A stretch of 64,000 nucleotides of DNA. Source: Gautieria morchelliformis (Eukaryota; Basidiomycota; Agaricomycetes; Gomphales; Gomphaceae). Below, piece by piece: positions 29,766 through 62,850 of the stretch. The stretch lies in contig WHVA01000504.1 in NCBI GenBank assembly GCA_015179125.1, positions 1 to 64,000 of the forward strand, in the 5' to 3' direction. The first letter of the stretch is position 1. Each line of letters opens with the position of its first letter. The position numbers and the translations under genes are program-made. Under the pieces are notes generated by a model. It worked only from the letters and a program-made list of their open reading frames with translations, was not told where the DNA came from and did no database searches.

Positions 29766-30780
29766 TTGCAAGCCTTACATATGCTCTACCGTGAGGATGG
29801 TGACTCACTGCATCTCAAATACCACTTAGGTTGCATACAAGGATGTATTTTCCACCTCTTGAGGAACTTGGGACTTACTCAGCTACCAGCACCATGGCTT
29901 AAGACATGCACAATGTCTAGGCCATTTACTGGTAGAGCTAAAAAAAGGAGCAGAGGACAAGTATGTCTTTCCTATTTTCTGATTTGGGTCATCATTCTTT
30001 ATTCACACCTGTTTAGTGAGCCAAATACCATATCTAGGATGGAAGTTGTCACCACTATCCATACTGGACAGGTCGATGGGCCAACGAAGCAACTGAACAT
30101 GGAGTGGATGCAGGATGTGGTATCTGGGAATTGCTGCCTGAGTCTACAACTTCTCACACAGCTCTTAGGAATACACTGGAACACTTTGAGGTATAAGCTG
30201 CAAGAAATGGGACTCAGCCAACGCTTCTCTAGTCTCAATGATATAGATATTGATCTCCTACTTAAACTCTACAAACAGCTTTGTCCAAACTCTGGACTTC
30301 GATATACAATGGGATTCCTAGGTTGCCATGGCATATGGATACAGAAGGAGCATGTCTGAAAATCACTGCAATGAGTTGATGGCCTCGGACAGGCACTCCG
30401 CCTACATGATACACTCCTACACTGCAAATACATTTCCACCATGTCAAATACCATTTGGCACTTTGGTGGCTTGCACAAACTGATTCAGTATGGAATTGGT
30501 ATTCACGGAGGTGTGGATGGACATGATCACACAGTACACAGTTTCGCAACATGAATATTTCATACTCACACTAAGAACAGATAGTTGCACTGCGTGCCAG
30601 CACCAATAATCATGCTACTACCGTCTTGGACTTGTTTTTGAATGCAGCAACTGAGTATGGCTGTCCATCGCATGCCCATGGAGATTGTGGTGGTGAAAAT
30701 ATCAAGCTTGCCATTTGGATGATCATGCACCATGGACCATCACGTGGCTCCTTTATGTGGGGGTCGTAAGTTATTTTGTG
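29766..30780 (+). pseudogene. Decayed integrase-like (rve) gene
   Basis: The first frame is 29766-30359, with VDGPTKQLNMEWM, LGIHWNTLRYKLQEMGLSQ and LRYTMGFLGCHGIWIQKEHV. Later pieces in other frames read LMASDRHSAYMIHSYTA and GENIKLAIWMIMHHGPSRG to 30771. The order (a helix-turn-helix-like start, a GxxRVQ-type block, then the DDE core) resembles the rve-type integrase proteins repeated in agaricomycete genomes; this is from memory. Several stops and frame changes make it a pseudogene. No TIRs were located around it. Confidence 0.5.
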
Positions 30781-56303: not shown

Positions 56304-56622
56304 ATCCGTCATCAGGGCATCAAACTGTGATGTGTTCAAAATACGTCCTTCTAGTCGCGCACATCATTACTGTATAAGAACTTGGTGAATGACTGGTGCA
56401 CCCTCAAATATACATAATTTCTTGACAGACATCATCATGTGTCTAGACACATCAGTGCCTACCACAGATATTACACTAGTCGCCTGGAGAAATCATGCCA
56501 CTTATGAAAGTGCCAACAACATACCACAACCATGGCTGGGCGTTAACCAAATGGTCACACTCAACTCATCATCATGAGAACAGCCAAGGGCGTACTATAG
56601 AAAGAAACTGTTGCATCCCATT

Positions 56623-56775
56623 TAGTGTTCTGCAAAGCCCGGCTCGGCTCAAAAGCCCCGGCTTCGGCTCGGCTCACGCCGGCTCGGGCTCACAGAATTC
56701 AGGGCCGGGCCCTGAGTGCCGGCTTGGGCTCGGCTCGGGCTTGGCCCGGCTTAAGCCGGGGCTCTTCAGTGGGAA
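56623..56775 (+). repeat. Left TIR and subterminal GC-rich repeats
   Basis: TIR 56623-56644, then many GGCTCGG/CCGGCTT words up to about 56770. A matching arrangement is inverted at 62595-62765. Confidence 0.85.
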
Positions 56776-56830
56776 ATATCGACCGAGGGGATGCAACGCC
56801 GAAGTGGAAATTCTATGTACTTTTAACTAG

Positions 56831-57052
56831 CTAGTCGTATTCTATATCGACTTCGCTCTCCCCCTCCACAAGCTCACAGTCACTGGAGAGGTCAATGACC
56901 TCTCCCGGTGTCTGAGGCACCTCCGGACCTTCGTCCATTAATTCGAGCTCATAAGAAGACGACGGAGCTGAATCCCGTAGTATCAACTTTGTCTTCAGTC
57001 CGCATTTGACGACCTGGTACGGTGCGTGAGCACCGTCACCTCTAGATTGCAC
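56831..57052 (-). CDS. Small acidic protein or exon in the DNA element
   Basis: 73-codon frame ending in a very acidic tail (DCELVEGESEVDIEYD). It has GDGAHAPYQVVKCGLKTK near its start. A related string, GDDAHAPYLECFN, is readable on the + strand at about 62005-62045 near the other end of the element, so this may be one exon of a gene type that recurs there. No function is known. An acceptor-like TCTAG precedes the block, so the ATG may not be the true start. Confidence 0.35.
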   Translation of the reverse strand: MQSRGDGAHAPYQVVKCGLKTKLILRDSAPSSSYELELMDEGPEVPQTPGEVIDLSSDCELVEGESEVDIEYD

Positions 57053-57344
57053 ATCGGAGATTTTAGAATACAGAATTTATATACCTACAATCCACGTCTT
57101 GACCCTGTGCCCATGGGCGCTATAGTTACCGTTGTTATTGCTTCCGCCCATTATGACTACTAACCAGTATAATCGGAACCCTACAGGGAGGAACCAATAC
57201 ACGGAGTGTCGTGCGTGCACCATCCCCATACAACTATAATTGTACTAGTCTAAGTGAAAATCTACTGAAGCCGAGCCAAACGACGAGGTAATAAGCAATC
57301 ACCTAATCGAATATCACCGTCGCGGCATCACAAGTGGAAAACAA

Positions 57345-58723
57345 ATGAGCGAGTTACTTTGGGTCGAGCACCAGGTGAAAATAAGGTAAATAAACACTTT
57401 CTTCCTTTGAATAGCAACTCAGGACAATCAGTGGAACGACTGTAGATCGTCGGCGTGCAGTATTAGGACTCACTGCTTCCGGTGCAACAACTCGTGCTCT
57501 CCCAGAGACTGTAAAGCGGCAACTTGTTTTAGATCAAATGGCAAAGGATCCTACGCGGCAACGTGGGCCCAAACTTATCGTGGAGGCCATTGCTAGGGAG
57601 ACTGGGAACCATTTAACTCAGTAAGTCAAATAGGTAGCTGTTTCGGTCTTGACTTACGTTGACCGTTCAAGGGAGTATGTTAGGGATGAGATGCGGATCC
57701 AAGATCCACTAGGGTTTGAGCTTCGTGAACCTACCGCTAAGAAAATATCCCGGCAAGCGTTAGTTGTCCTTGGACCACATCATGAGTGGAGCGGGGACGG
57801 TCATGACAAACTATCAAAGATTGGGTTTCCGGTTTGGGCCCTTCGAGACGTGTGGTCAGGTAAATGGTTGGGAATCTGGGTGGTTCCCAATAATCGGTTG
57901 AAGCATGCCATCGCATATCTATATTTATCGTTGGTTGAAAGCCTCGGTGGTTCGTGACTTGTGAGACAGTGTAAACTTTGATATATTGCTTATTGGATAT
58001 TAGGTATGCCAATTCAAACCACCACAGACTGTGGCAGCGAAACTATCACAGTTTTCGGCCTTGCACATGCAATGCGGTAGGTATTTATGACATGTTTTGT
58101 TGTGACCAACATATAAGTCTACTGATTGTTTAGGGAACATTTTTCACCGCAACTCTCTACTGATGAACTACCGGCACACAAGTTCCTTAAGTCTGTTCAT
58201 AATACGACAATTGAACAGGGCTGGCTTCAACTTCGGTTACAGTGGGGTGACAACGTAAAAATATTTTGGGAGGCTGGTGATGGTATATACAATCCCTCAA
58301 ATCCAAACCACTAGTGTCATCAATTATTCTATCTCTTAATTGGTGTACTAATATGTTTCAAGTGAACTCGTCCAATGGCTGTGGCCTACAATGATTCAAA
58401 AGAAATTAGATGAGCTTCAAGATCAGTTCAACAATCATGTTGTGCGAAAGGTCAATGGGAAAGTTTTACCATCAGGTGTTTCCCCTAACATTGCATATGC
58501 ATTACCTGACCAATACGGCGGTGAGAATCATCTTCAGCCCATTGACAAACTAGCGGCACAAGGGTTGATGGAAGCTATCGGTGGTAAGGAACTTATTCAG
58601 TTTGTGAGCGAAGAGTATGCTTCACATGCAGCTGAGGTTTTTCATTCACTGGGTGTTGAGAGACTCACGATGCAAAATGTATGGGTTATCTTCAAGGATA
58701 TGTTGCCGCTGATGCATCCCTAA
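57345..58723 (+). CDS. rve/DDE integrase-like protein, candidate transposase
   Basis: 375 residues in six exons: 57345-57374, 57415-57620, 57672-57949, 58004-58076, 58134-58313 and 58363-58723; all GT-AG, phases consistent. The N-terminal region has QRGPKLIVEAIARETGNHLT and LREPTAKKISR. The catalytic core shows Asp in HHEWSGDGHDKL, Asp in TTTDCGSET and Glu in TTIEQGWLQLR, a full D-D-E set. RDVWSGKWLGIWVVPNNR and VSPNIAYALPDQYGGENHL complete the family pattern known to me from integrase-core proteins of agaricomycetes. No stop interrupts it. As the only recombinase inside the TIRs it is the likely transposase, though that is inference. The start ATG could be further upstream. Confidence 0.82.
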
Positions 58724-58846
58724 TTCAAAAAAGAATTATTTTTTTGCCATTCAGAATGAAGACAGAATGAACATTTAAATCTTCAACAATGGGTGATTAA
58801 AGGAACCATAGTAAACTAGCGATGAAGAAACTATGCCATCGTAATT

Positions 58847-61237
58847 TTAAAGCTCCCACTGTCGGTGAAGATTCTGAGGCTTTATAGTCGGTAACACCTC
58901 CATTTGAGGGACAGCTATATCATTAAGTGGTGCCGGTACAACGACAACCTCTGTATTGAGACCCAACTTGCGACAGATTTTGTTGCATTTATGTTCCTTG
59001 AGAAACTGCAGAATTCCTGACGGGCCTTTGTCCCAGAAGCCCGATGAACCATCAAATCTAGTATAACAAATCAATAGTTTGCTGCAATGGAGAATAGCAA
59101 CCTACGTGTGTGCTTGCGGGTCAAAAAGAACGACCTGGTTCTCTGAGTAAACAAAGCCTAACGATATGTTAAACATCATTCTGTGTTTATACCACGTGCA
59201 CTTACCTTGAATGTCTACAAATACATACTCTCCCATGCTGTCAACAACCGTATGATGGGCAAATGCGTTGATCCAGATCCCAAGATAATCACTATTTACG
59301 TTCGGTGGCCCCAGGTTCAAGTAACGGTACAGCCAGAAATACGTTCCATATTAGACTCTGGTTTGAGCGTTGCTCCGCAGGGAGATCAGGCAGTTTATTA
59401 ACCAGCGTACCCAGGAATGCACCGTCAGCATTCCACTTCATCTCTTCAGATAGACATCAAGTACTGCTACAAGTAAAACAGATACACATACCTGGAATAT
59501 TTTTGGCACCATACTGCTGTGCACGTCGTATGAATGAGTCAAGGAAAAACTTTCCCCATGCTAATAGCTTGAGTTCACATTTGAGGTCGTACTTATTCAG
59601 ATATTCGGTATCGCCGTTCAAATTTTTCAACTGAAGTACAGCAAAACTGTCGCTTGCAACACGCCCCTGTGTGACAGTTAAAATAGAATAGGACATTGGT
59701 AGAGTGCTCACCATAAATGCAAATTTCACATAGCCATATCCAAGGTATCCTTCTTCTCTCTTACCTGTATTGACATATTTTCGCCAGTTCTTGGGAATCA
59801 AAATTGTTTTAATATCTATGCTGTCTTCCTTTTCCGTGACCTCCCCTTCCACATTGACAAGATAGGTTTCACGATAAAATGGGTACGTGTCCTATTCAAT
59901 CTTGGGTGCACTAGCATTCCCAAGACCTGTACCTGATCGGCGCCGATATGCACTCACGTAGCGTTTTGCTGATGGGAGGGGTTCCTCTACTAGAATTAGT
60001 ATAATACTATGTCTAAACTAAGAACATTTACCATGTGATATAGATGAAAGCTTGCGTTTGGATGAACGAGCCACTGAGCGCATGTGGAACGGTGGTATAG
60101 GCCTTGAGTCACATTCAATATCTTCATCGGTCTTCAAAGTTTCAGCATCACTAGCCAAGAAAATATACATAAATATCACCTACAGTATCAGATTTTATTT
60201 CATAGAGACGCAGCTGCATCGTGATACATTTACCTTTGATGTCCTTGTCCGATAGCAAGCTGTCCTTCTCCAGCTTTTCATGCAGGGCTTGAACGGTGCA
60301 AAAAAGGTTAGGCTCGTCAATATCTAAGTAACTGCTCTCATGAACAGTCTTTGCAACCGCAAAAACCACTTTGTCTCTAGAAATGTACACACGGCGATTC
60401 AGTATCAGATAACACATGAATCAGTAGACAAATTTACCTCAAAAAGAACGGTTTTGGTGTGGGTTTATCAGCAATCGCAGCCTTATCATACACCTTTTCA
60501 GCATGTTCAAGAAGCCGATCTATCATTTCAGTGGCAAGTGTCGTGGCAGTGAAACCTTCGACTACTGCTGGTATTTGAATCTTACCGTGATTGTGAGCAA
60601 CTTACACAAAAATTCAGCACAAAATAACCTACTTGATGAGGCTTACAACCTCCCTTCAACCTTACAGCCGGATAATACCAAATCGTTAGCTTAATGCCGA
60701 TGGAGTCCATCTTGCTAAGCTTCCTCAAGGCTTGAGTTTTCTTCAGGATCTCACTACCTTTCTTGAGGCTTGGGTTCTGTGATCGTCTATTTAGACGATG
60801 GTCAGATGCAGAGCCCTCGTGCTCGGCAGTTCGCTTGAGAATATGGTTCATCACATCATCGCCGCCTATGCAATATTGTGAGAAGAGGTTTAACAGTGAT
60901 AGAGAATGACTCACCGCTGAAAAGTTGTGGCTCTATGGCGCAGTCAGTTGCAGATACAGCCAGTAATACGCTGGACTTACCCTTTTCGGCATCTTCATTG
61001 CATTTACCGCATAACTTGGATTTCAGGAACGGATAAACCACCCCGCACCCGAGGCACTGAGGAAGAACCTGTATGGATATGAGTAAAAGTAAAGATGATT
61101 CCAACATGATTACATACTTCAATTGCTTTGCGTTCGGTTTCAGATGTTGCGGCCAGCAGTTTGTCACACTTCGCACATTGAAGTAGAATCGAGTCGAGGC
61201 GAGGGAACCTATTGGAACAACCTTGACAGTGAGTCAT
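58847..61237 (-). pseudogene. Alpha-kinase (atypical Ser/Thr kinase) with N-terminal zinc ribbons
   Basis: Minus-strand multi-exon gene. Exon 1 (61237-61118) gives MTHCQGCSNRFPRL and QCAKC; exon 2 (61068-60981) gives QCLGCGVVY and KLCGKCNED: four Cx2C pairs. From 60865 follow a basic linker and KIQIPAVVEGFTATTL. The alpha-kinase domain spans about 59860-58900: GYLGYGYVKFAFM, CELKLLAWGKFFLDSF, INAFAHH, YVFVDIQG, VVLFDPQAHT, and DKGPSGILQFLKEHKCNKIC, whose His and Cys match the structural zinc site of alpha-kinases (eEF2 kinase/MHCK family). One in-frame TAG is seen at 59892-59894 just before the kinase domain; unless spliced around, the gene is broken. Otherwise the catalytic region looks intact. 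Substrates are unknown. Confidence 0.75.
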
Positions 61238-61918
61238 TGCAGAACAACAAAAAGAACAACACACTTGTACCAGTTTTATACCATGTAGCATAACTGCGAT
61301 CTGCCCAAGAGATCAGAGAAAATTCTAAGTGAGCCAATGCTCAGCACAATACATGCATTAGTGAGACTCACCGTCAATATATATACAGTTAAAACTTCAT
61401 TGTTACCGCTAATAGTGTATTAAAACTTCGTTGTTGCCACTAACAGTGTATAACGGCTGAAACAACCAGTGCACTTCAGCTCAAACAAATTTATGTGAAA
61501 GAAAGAAAGATTACCGGGCCCATCAGGTTAAGCAGGAGGCTAGTCTAGACACAGAGTCTCCGTTGTATCAAATACAACACCGCTCCATTCCCTAAAATTT
61601 TACAACCATACTTGTATTCGCCGTTTCCCCCGTGATACGAGTTAACGTCAGCTTAAGTTCACTGTGATGGATCGCTCACACCGTACTTACAAAGAATTGG
61701 CCAAGTTCAACACATCGGCGTTTGACTACCGGCCATCGTCAATAGCGGGATGTCTTCCAGTCTTTCAGCTTGCTGTAACAGTTAGGCGTTAGTTTTAATG
61801 AAATCATGAGAGTCATGGACATGGAGTCGACGACAGTCTGAAGCAGAGCTTACGGTCGACGACGGTCAGGAGTAGACTCGCCGTTTCCTTCGGACTTTGT
61901 GTCACGTGATGTGCTGAG

Positions 61919-62500
61919 TTAGGTTCTTTGGGCGCTTAAATACATGTGGATCGTGAAACATGAAACATGAATATTGGATCTTGACAATTGAAATCCTGCC
62001 CCTTGAATTTCAGAGGTGACGATGCTCACGCACCGTACCTGGAGTGCTTCAACTACATCTCCTTTGAGTCGGTTCCGCCGTTTTGTGATTGTAATTCCCG
62101 AGCTTGAATGCTTTGAATACCTGAATCTTAGATCAATAGATAGACAATATTCTATGCAAAGATATGACTCACCAGTAATGCCGCCAGATTCCTTGTTCAT
62201 AACCATTTCAGTACTACTGAAATCAGTAGGCTTGGCAACGGTCCTTTCATTTGGCTCGATCACCAGGGCCGGCTCAACAATAGTCTTTTGTTTTTTATTT
62301 TTATGTTGGTCAGTAGTTTCTACCACCTTAGTCACGACCTTGGCATGCTTGCGTTGACCAAGAACATTGGCCACATTATCGGGATCCTTCAGTGTGGCAC
62401 TTGGCTTTAGCGTTCGGCCCGAATGGGCACTCTGATAGGGAGCAGCTGAACCTCGTCCTCATTGCTGGGGTCCTGGATACGGGGCAAGGTCATGGCAGTG
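61919..62500 (-). CDS. Unrecognised frame at right end of the DNA element
   Basis: Open minus-strand reading at 62374-61919, with Lys-rich VLGQRKHAKVV and DQHKNKKQKTIVEPALVIEP, then EMVMNKESGGITGES before a likely donor. It has no in-frame ATG close by; a short frame MTLPRIQDPSNEDEVQLLP just upstream (to 62407) is in another phase. It may be the 5' part of a gene reading toward the alpha-kinase. No domain was recognised. Confidence 0.3.
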
Positions 62501-62594
62501 AGCAGCAGACAGAAAATTTTTTCAAACTTAACCAATAGAGTACAGGATATACTCAAATTAGCTACCTGAGTGCCGCTTGCCACCCGAACAGTGC

Positions 62595-62765
62595 ATACCA
62601 GGTAAGCGCCCAAAAGCCGCGGCTTCAGGGCTCGGCTCGGGCTCTCAAAACTCAAGCCGGGCCCTAGATCCCGGCCTCAGGACGGCTTTGGCCCAGCTCG
62701 GCCCGGCTTTTGGGGGCCCGGCTCCGGCTTAGGCCGTGGCTGAAGCCGGGCTTTGCAGAACACTA
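62595..62765 (-). repeat. Right TIR and subterminal GC-rich repeats
   Basis: TIR 62744-62765, the reverse complement of 56623-56644. Inside it GCCCGGCTT/GGCTCGGG words continue to about 62600. Confidence 0.85.
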
Positions 62766-62850
62766 ATCCCATTTCAGGCCCTACCCGTAAACTGGCAATA
62801 TTTAGTTCACCTTCCTCGACGCCCTCACCTATGACGGTCGGTTTGGACAA

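What the first reader, a model, noticed from the sequence alone, without database searches (positions are those of the whole stretch)
56623..62765. DNA element with hAT-like ends, an rve/DDE integrase and an alpha-kinase cargo
Seen: exact 22-bp TIRs, 8-bp TSD ATCCCATT, subterminal GC-rich repeats, a six-exon gene with a D-D-E set, and an antisense alpha-kinase gene with zinc-ribbon pairs. Known: 8-bp TSDs and TAGNG ends belong to hAT elements, whose transposase is different from an rve fold. Inference: either a non-hAT recombinase makes 8-bp TSDs, or the element is mobilised in trans and carries two cargo genes. A transposon-borne alpha-kinase could explain lineage-specific expansion of this kinase in agaricomycetes.
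Basis: partly seen in the sequence, partly recalled or inferred. Interest (0 to 1): 0.88.

Follow-up and report, generated by a model that had tools for sequence, protein, structure and literature searches.

The report
Alpha-kinase transposon nested in hAT element
What looked like one strange transposon is two of known kinds, one inside the other: a defective hAT element whose interior was hit by an IS3EU-type transposon that carries its own integrase-like transposase and a protein-kinase gene, a pairing that recurs many times in this mushroom genome.

Summary
The sequence features are real, but they belong to two elements. The outer one (1.12 kb without its insert) is an internally deleted hAT: exact 22-bp TIRs, 8-bp TSD. 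Nine of 20 fetched copies run uninterrupted through the site split here, and a 3.68-kb relative with the same exact TIRs carries a hAT transposase domain. The inner one (57018-62037) has its own 26-bp TIRs (TACGG..CCGTA) and a 5-bp TSD (CCTGG). It holds both genes; 14 other copies (several truncated) show no hAT arms at their borders. It fits fungal IS3EU transposons, for which a 2025 paper already reports an alpha-kinase gene opposite to the transposase. The window's transposase is open in six exons; its kinase is broken by a private 29-bp deletion. No TET/JBP gene over the family cut-off was found. What the kinase does for the element remains open.

The parts
56615..56622 (.). outer (hAT) target site duplication ATCCCATT, left
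62766..62773 (.). outer (hAT) target site duplication ATCCCATT, right
56623..56644 (+). outer element left TIR, 22 bp
62744..62765 (-). outer element right TIR, 22 bp
56623..57017 (.). outer hAT left arm, with GC-rich subterminal repeats
   Evidence: both arms together 95-99% identical to 9 uninterrupted copies
62043..62765 (.). outer hAT right arm; a - strand coding-like stretch (about 62100-62458) resembles the start of the 3.68-kb hAT copy on C815
57013..57017 (.). inner element target site duplication CCTGG, left (ACCTGG if the preceding A is counted)
62038..62042 (.). inner element target site duplication CCTGG, right
57018..57043 (+). inner element (IS3EU-like) left TIR, begins TACGG
62012..62037 (-). 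inner element right TIR, 1 mismatch to the left one, ends CCGTA
57018..62037 (.). inner IS3EU-like transposon, 5,020 bp, transposase and alpha-kinase in convergent order, no TET/JBP match
57345..58723 (+). transposase gene, six exons (in-frame cores 57345-57374, 57415-57618, 57673-57948, 58006-58074, 58135-58278, 58364-58720), rve/rva_4 type, D121 D180 E223, no stop or indel in the cores; splice sites are my reading
58847..61291 (-). alpha-kinase gene, 13 exons in a heuristic prediction (exact splice sites uncertain), N-terminal double zinc ribbon (exon cores 61118-61237 and 60982-61068), C-terminal alpha-kinase part
59296..59297 (-). site of a private 29-bp frameshifting deletion in the kinase domain of the window copy (14 of 14 other copies keep the stretch)
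61389..61450 (+). 31-bp tandem duplication between kinase gene and right TIR of the inner element
   Evidence: family D3

Best explanation
Two nested cut-and-paste DNA transposons. First a hAT element that had lost most of its transposase gene (1.12 kb, presumably moved in trans by fuller hAT relatives) inserted here and duplicated 8 bp. Later an autonomous-looking IS3EU-type transposon of 5,020 bp inserted into it and duplicated 5 bp. The IS3EU element most likely moves itself: its rve-fold DDE transposase recognises the TACGG..CCGTA ends and joins them to staggered cuts in the target. Its second, convergent gene makes a zinc-ribbon alpha-kinase that I take to serve the element (for example by phosphorylating the transposase or a host chromatin or silencing protein) rather than the host. 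Shown: nesting, ends, duplications, gene content, recurrence of the pair, past constraint on both genes. Inferred: which enzyme moved which element, and what the kinase does. The window's kinase was disabled by a deletion not shared by other copies.
For: Outer: 9 of 20 fetched copies align through the insertion point; 14 of 17 copies with both TIRs in the fetched stretch have an exact 8-bp TSD, one more has a single mismatch, two have none (two pairs of copies share a TSD and look like segmental duplicates). C815:269206-272885 has both exact TIRs, TSD CCTACACA and a PF05699 hAT dimerisation match 361 bp inside one end (with one stop inside); PF05699 matches without stops lie about 380 bp inside an identical TIR at C302 and C453, where only the one TIR was matched up. 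Inner: 14 further copies (several truncated) and a fragment in 15 fetched loci, no outer arm at their borders; one 77% arm fragment about 800 bp away in L022. TIR pattern 30 matches, reversed control 0. Exact 5-bp TSD at 7 of 10 end pairs. Ends TACGG..CCGTA and alpha-kinase opposite to the transposase are those published for fungal IS3EU (PMC12730594; passages and section 4.1). Pairing: 39 of 56 PF02816 matches within 5 kb of an IS3EU-like transposase, 35 convergent, about 0.6 expected with uniform placement at 8 kb (many belong to the same multi-copy families, so they are not independent); 0 of 62 loci of other rva_4 transposases have a PF02816 match within 8.5 kb. A family whose transposase is about 30% identical has TACGG (L061) and CCGTA (L062) inverted ends and the convergent kinase. 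Constraint: dN/dS between subfamilies 0.34-0.46 (transposase, three comparisons) and 0.28-0.48 (kinase, four).
Against: TSD is 5 bp in this family, while published IS3EU make 6 bp (usually); a sister copy (L064) has 6 bp (CACGCA), another (L063) none clear, a third (L065) no matched right end. If the last A of the right end is counted to the target, 6 bp fits 4 of the 7. 3 of 10 end pairs have no clean 5-bp repeat (L010 4 bp, L011 none, C470 none and perhaps two elements). 17 of 56 kinase matches have no detected transposase near, 4 of 39 are not convergent, and 30 of 77 transposase loci have no detected kinase within 8 kb. Within the young cluster dN/dS is 0.76 (transposase) and 0.56 (kinase), nearer to decay, and one transposase comparison (L019, much of the gene missing) gives 1.21. 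The window transposase scores below the PF24764 cut-off (19.3 of 26), though relatives pass (26.6 and 32.2). No reference IS3EU protein was held for a tree. No kinase function was shown.
Confidence: 0.93

Rival explanations
1. One composite element: hAT ends mobilise a unit that has captured an integrase gene and an alpha-kinase as cargo.
For: Exact hAT-like TIRs and 8-bp TSD enclose both genes.
Against: Separate TIRs and TSD for the inner unit, 9 of 20 uninterrupted outer copies, inner copies elsewhere without outer arms.
Confidence: 0.02
2. The inner element is not IS3EU but a separate rve-type superfamily with 5-bp target duplications that shares TAC..GTA ends by convergence.
For: 5-bp rather than 6-bp TSD at 7 of 10 end pairs; the window transposase is below the PF24764 cut-off; no reference IS3EU protein could be compared.
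Against: TAYGG..CCRTA ends and opposite alpha-kinase gene match published fungal IS3EU; a sister copy has a 6-bp TSD.
Confidence: 0.1
3. The alpha-kinase is passive cargo (for example a once captured host gene) with no role in the element's life cycle.
For: Window kinase is broken while its transposase is open; 17 of 56 kinase matches have no transposase detected near; kinase evolves about twice as fast as the transposase between families (dN 0.34-0.36 against 0.16).
Against: Same convergent order across transposases down to about 30% identity, kinase dN/dS below 0.5 between subfamilies, same opposite orientation published for TET-bearing fungal IS3EU (PMC12730594).
Confidence: 0.25

Closest known systems
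IS3EU (IS3EU/GingerRoot) DNA transposons, fungal families of Kojima 2025 (PMC12730594; also PMC10045372)
   Same: TAYGG..CCRTA ends, DDD/E transposase, alpha-kinase gene in the opposite orientation to the transposase
   Different: no TET/JBP gene (none over cut-off in this genome); 5-bp instead of 6-bp TSD; TIR 26 bp where the paper gives over 30 bp for its rust families
hAT superfamily (outer element)
   Same: 8-bp TSD, short TIRs starting TAG, subterminal repeats, longer relative with a Dimer_Tnp_hAT match
   Different: window copy lacks nearly all of the transposase gene and is interrupted
Styx of Zymoseptoria (PMC10853768, passages seen)
   Same: fungal element derived from an IS3EU ancestor that the paper draws as encoding two proteins
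   Different: ascomycete host, extra co-opted genes; identity of the second protein not checked here
Alpha-kinases of solved structure (4kuj, eEF2 kinase, MHCK-A)
   Same: C-terminal part of the relative P0126 aligns, with DIQG, DPxxH and CNxxC motifs kept in the two alignments shown
   Different: double zinc-ribbon N-terminus; no match over the rest of the protein

Membership tests
IS3EU | TA..TA termini (fungal: TAYGG..CCRTA) | tested here: met
   TACGG..CCGTA in the window and copies; also in a sister family and a divergent family
IS3EU | 6-bp TSD (usually) | tested here: not met
   5 bp at 7 of 10 end pairs; 4 of the 7 become 6 bp only if the terminal A is counted; sister copy L064 has 6 bp. 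The paper says 'usually', so I treat this as a variant and say IS3EU-like
IS3EU | DDD/E transposase that groups with IS3EU proteins | not testable with these tools
   D-D-E present and conserved, PF24764 over cut-off in P0001 and P0003; no Repbase IS3EU protein held; only sub-cut-off bacterial matches (IS3 for P0003 E 0.012, IS630 for P0001 and P0012)
IS3EU | alpha-kinase gene opposite to transposase (reported for TET-bearing fungal families) | tested here: met
   PMC12730594 section 4.1
hAT (outer) | 8-bp TSD | tested here: met
   window; 14 of 17 exact elsewhere
hAT (outer) | hAT transposase in longer copies with the same TIRs | tested here: met
   C815 element, PF05699; its frames are split and the domain holds a stop, so it may not be active
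alpha-kinase family | PF02816 match over cut-off | tested here: met
   window frame 22.8 bits of 21.3; P0121 51, P0126 56 bits
alpha-kinase family | kinase activity | not testable with these tools
   motifs only

The most novel reading that the evidence does not exclude
A zinc-ribbon alpha-kinase is an old, core second gene of basidiomycete IS3EU transposons, independent of TET/JBP, and is kept by selection because it helps the element move or escape silencing. Most expansions of alpha-kinase genes counted in basidiomycete genomes, including those read as signalling or host-interaction gene families, would then be transposon copies.
Probability: 0.5. Interest if true: 0.65.

Novelty: new member of a known kind. 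Interest (0 to 1): 0.4.

Why it matters
It removes an apparent exception (hAT ends with an rve transposase) and puts the alpha-kinase on the right element. It also shows that in one mushroom genome 39 of 56 alpha-kinase matches sit beside IS3EU-like transposases, in a genome without a TET/JBP match over cut-off, so alpha-kinase counts in fungal genomes should be checked for transposon origin before they are read as host biology. Why a transposon keeps a protein kinase can now be tested.

Tried and rejected
Rejected: a single composite element. I first read the inner TSD as the 6-bp ACCTGG from the window alone; the other copies showed that 5 bp fits all seven clean cases and 6 bp does not. An earlier count said '16 of 17' outer TSDs; the count is 14 of 17 exact plus one with a mismatch. 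The line 'between E9 and E10' printed cut off the stretch kept in the other copies and is wrong; one search replaces it. 'Orphan' kinases (30 of 56) looked like host genes until two copies of one family were fetched and proved to sit beside a more divergent transposase, leaving 17. In one search I left out L012b and L020 (near-duplicates of L012a and L019) and skipped codons with stops or gaps. The A2 search of the protein database gave 10 proteins, five of them new, one outside Gautieria (Russula vinacea, P0132, 32% identity); sharing of contigs with transposases could not be shown for it. A3 against solved structures gave no match; NCBIfam nothing above cut-off. Nine paper searches; passages read of PMC12730594, PMC10045372, PMC10853768, PMC4469406, PMC5295586, PMC4150398, and section 4.1 of PMC12730594 whole; the other papers only as listings.
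Full report
What was checked. The 22-bp inverted ends, the ATCCCATT duplication, the GC-rich subterminal repeats, a six-exon D-D-E gene and an antisense alpha-kinase gene with CxxC pairs are at the given coordinates. The repeat search also showed a second, longer pair of inverted repeats inside the first (57013-57043 with 62012-62042), and this is the key to the locus.

Nesting. A search of the window's own genome with the whole 6,143-bp stretch (71 matches, 40 of 363 candidates scored) splits it at query positions about 395 and 5415: some places match only the two outer arms joined together, others only the inner part. Of 20 outer copies fetched, 9 align without interruption through the point that is split in the window, 8 of the 9 with the same sequence GACGACCTGGAGTG and L026 with one change; the other 11 belong to a subfamily that lacks this stretch. 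In 15 loci fetched for inner matches, which hold 14 copies and a fragment, no outer arm borders an inner copy in the roughly 1-kb flanks; one 77% arm fragment lies about 800 bp off in L022. The inner end TACGGTGCGTGAGCACCGTCACCTCT is found 30 times with up to 3 mismatches against 0 for the reversed pattern, the outer 22-bp end 184 times with up to 2 mismatches against 0.

The outer element. Of 17 fetched copies in which both TIRs lie in the fetched stretch, 14 have an exact 8-bp duplication, one has a single mismatch and two have none; two pairs share a duplication and are probably segmental duplicates. In the 3 others only one TIR was in the stretch; for one of them, C815, a further fetch showed a 3,680-bp copy with both exact TIRs and the duplication CCTACACA. 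It holds a Dimer_Tnp_hAT (PF05699) match 361 bp inside one end, with one stop in it. PF05699 matches without stops lie about 380 bp inside an identical TIR at C302 and C453. The outer element is therefore an internally deleted hAT.

The inner element. It runs from 57018 to 62037. Flanks give exact 5-bp duplications at 7 of 10 end pairs (window CCTGG, L009 CGCAG, L012 CGCGT, L013/L067 CAAAT, L014 CTTAA, L015/L016 AATGC, L022 CCCGG); L010 shares 4 bp, L011 none, and a C470 pair 13.5 kb apart, perhaps two elements, none. Main-cluster copies are 97-98.4% identical to each other in a star-like pattern (99.8% for the two in L012), other copies 90-96%, which suggests a burst. Of 15 copies, four (window, L010, L014, L015) have neither stop nor indel in the transposase exon cores, and L009 has only a 9-bp in-frame deletion; in the kinase exon cores L010 and L014 have neither. 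The window kinase has a 29-bp frameshifting deletion which the 14 other copies do not share.

What kind it is. The transposase has 243 relatives with E up to 0.001, 120 of them listed; where the listed rows name a host it is, by my reading, an agaricomycete fungus, and many carry PF24764. Kojima 2025 (PMC12730594; passages and section 4.1) reports for fungal TET-bearing IS3EU: termini TAYGG..CCRTA and 6-bp duplications in rusts, and in all such families an alpha-kinase gene opposite to the transposase. PMC10045372 (passages) gives TA..TA ends and usually 6 bp. The inner element fits in termini, gene pair and orientation. It differs in the 5-bp duplication and in having no TET/JBP gene: none of the 10 frames scanned matched one, and PF12851 has no match over cut-off in the whole genome, only one weak one elsewhere. 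A sister family (transposase 71% identical) has a 6-bp duplication in L064 and no clear one in L063; L065 showed no right end. I could not place the transposase on a tree with reference IS3EU proteins.

How general the pairing is. PF02816 matches 56 places in this genome at E up to 0.01 (85 of 85 candidates scored). Taking transposase matches from two queries (a capped list), 39 of the 56 lie within 5 kb of one: 35 convergent, 2 on the same strand, 2 divergent; 17 have none; about 0.6 would be expected with uniform placement and an 8-kb limit. Thirteen of the 35 belong to the window's own family, so the matches are not independent. Of 77 transposase loci 47 have a kinase match within 8 kb, counting seven kinase places found only with the protein P0126; 30 do not. 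As a control, 0 of 62 loci of other PF24764 transposases, listed by hand from the capped, have a PF02816 match within 8.5 kb (kinases there were sought with PF02816 alone). A family with a transposase about 30% identical has TACGG (L061) and CCGTA (L062) ends that are inverted repeats of each other and the same convergent order; each of the two copies showed only one end. Relatives of the kinase occur in Ramaria rubella and Russula vinacea.

Constraint. Between subfamilies of the inner element mean dN/dS is 0.34, 0.46 and 0.41 for the transposase (main cluster against L017, L018, L021) and 0.38, 0.39, 0.48 and 0.28 for the kinase (L017, L018, L021, L019); a fourth transposase comparison (L019, most of the gene missing) gives 1.21. 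Within the young cluster it is 0.76 and 0.56. Against the sister family synonymous sites are saturated and dN is about 0.16 (transposase) and 0.34-0.36 (kinase). Both genes were under purifying selection, the kinase apparently less tightly.

Mechanism. The hAT element was presumably moved by a hAT transposase in trans, and the inner element most likely by its own DDE transposase; both are inferred from ends, duplications and gene content. The kinase relative P0126 keeps motifs seen in solved alpha-kinases, and the family adds a double zinc ribbon. I favour a role for the element (phosphorylation of the transposase or of a host chromatin factor), at moderate confidence; passive cargo is the main rival.

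Literature. Alpha-kinases are said to be highly expanded in rusts (PMC4469406, one passage), the family is in an enrichment table for wheat rusts (PMC5295586, one passage), and one rust alpha-kinase was listed among genes under diversifying selection (PMC4150398, passages). Kojima's finding and the counts here suggest that such expansions may be IS3EU copies; that was not tested outside this genome. None of the listings and passages that I saw makes that link; papers known only from listings may.

Host. Contig lengths of the search hits (93629, 336524, 143707, 100120, 267376, 133163, 73223, 97475) equal those of contigs C508, C637, C327, C477, C14, C365, C600, C487, and the records name Gautieria morchelliformis; the name is inferred from this.

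Noticed in passing
window 30438-30772 (+): Exons of another PF24764 (rva_4) transposase family lie in the same window.
   Followed up: no
L012 (C332:34869-44868): Two inner-family copies, 99.8% identical, tail to tail; one has a CGCGT duplication and seems to have inserted into the end of the other.
   Followed up: partly
L061 5215-6486 (C622): A retrotransposon gag-like reading frame with a CCHC-type motif lies near the divergent IS3EU-like copy.
   Followed up: no
L030/L031 and L041/L042: Pairs of outer hAT copies on different contigs share the same 8-bp duplication, so those stretches are probably segmental duplicates or allelic contigs.
   Followed up: no
C194, C559, C415, C147: Four alpha-kinase matches near an IS3EU-like transposase are divergent or on the same strand, unlike the other 35.
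   Followed up: no
L063 679-820 and L064 767-: The sister IS3EU-like family has inverted ends about 100 bp long in L063 but a shorter matching right end in L064.
   Followed up: no
C773:2488-2904 of the own genome: The only TET/JBP-like match in the genome, below the family cut-off.
   Followed up: no
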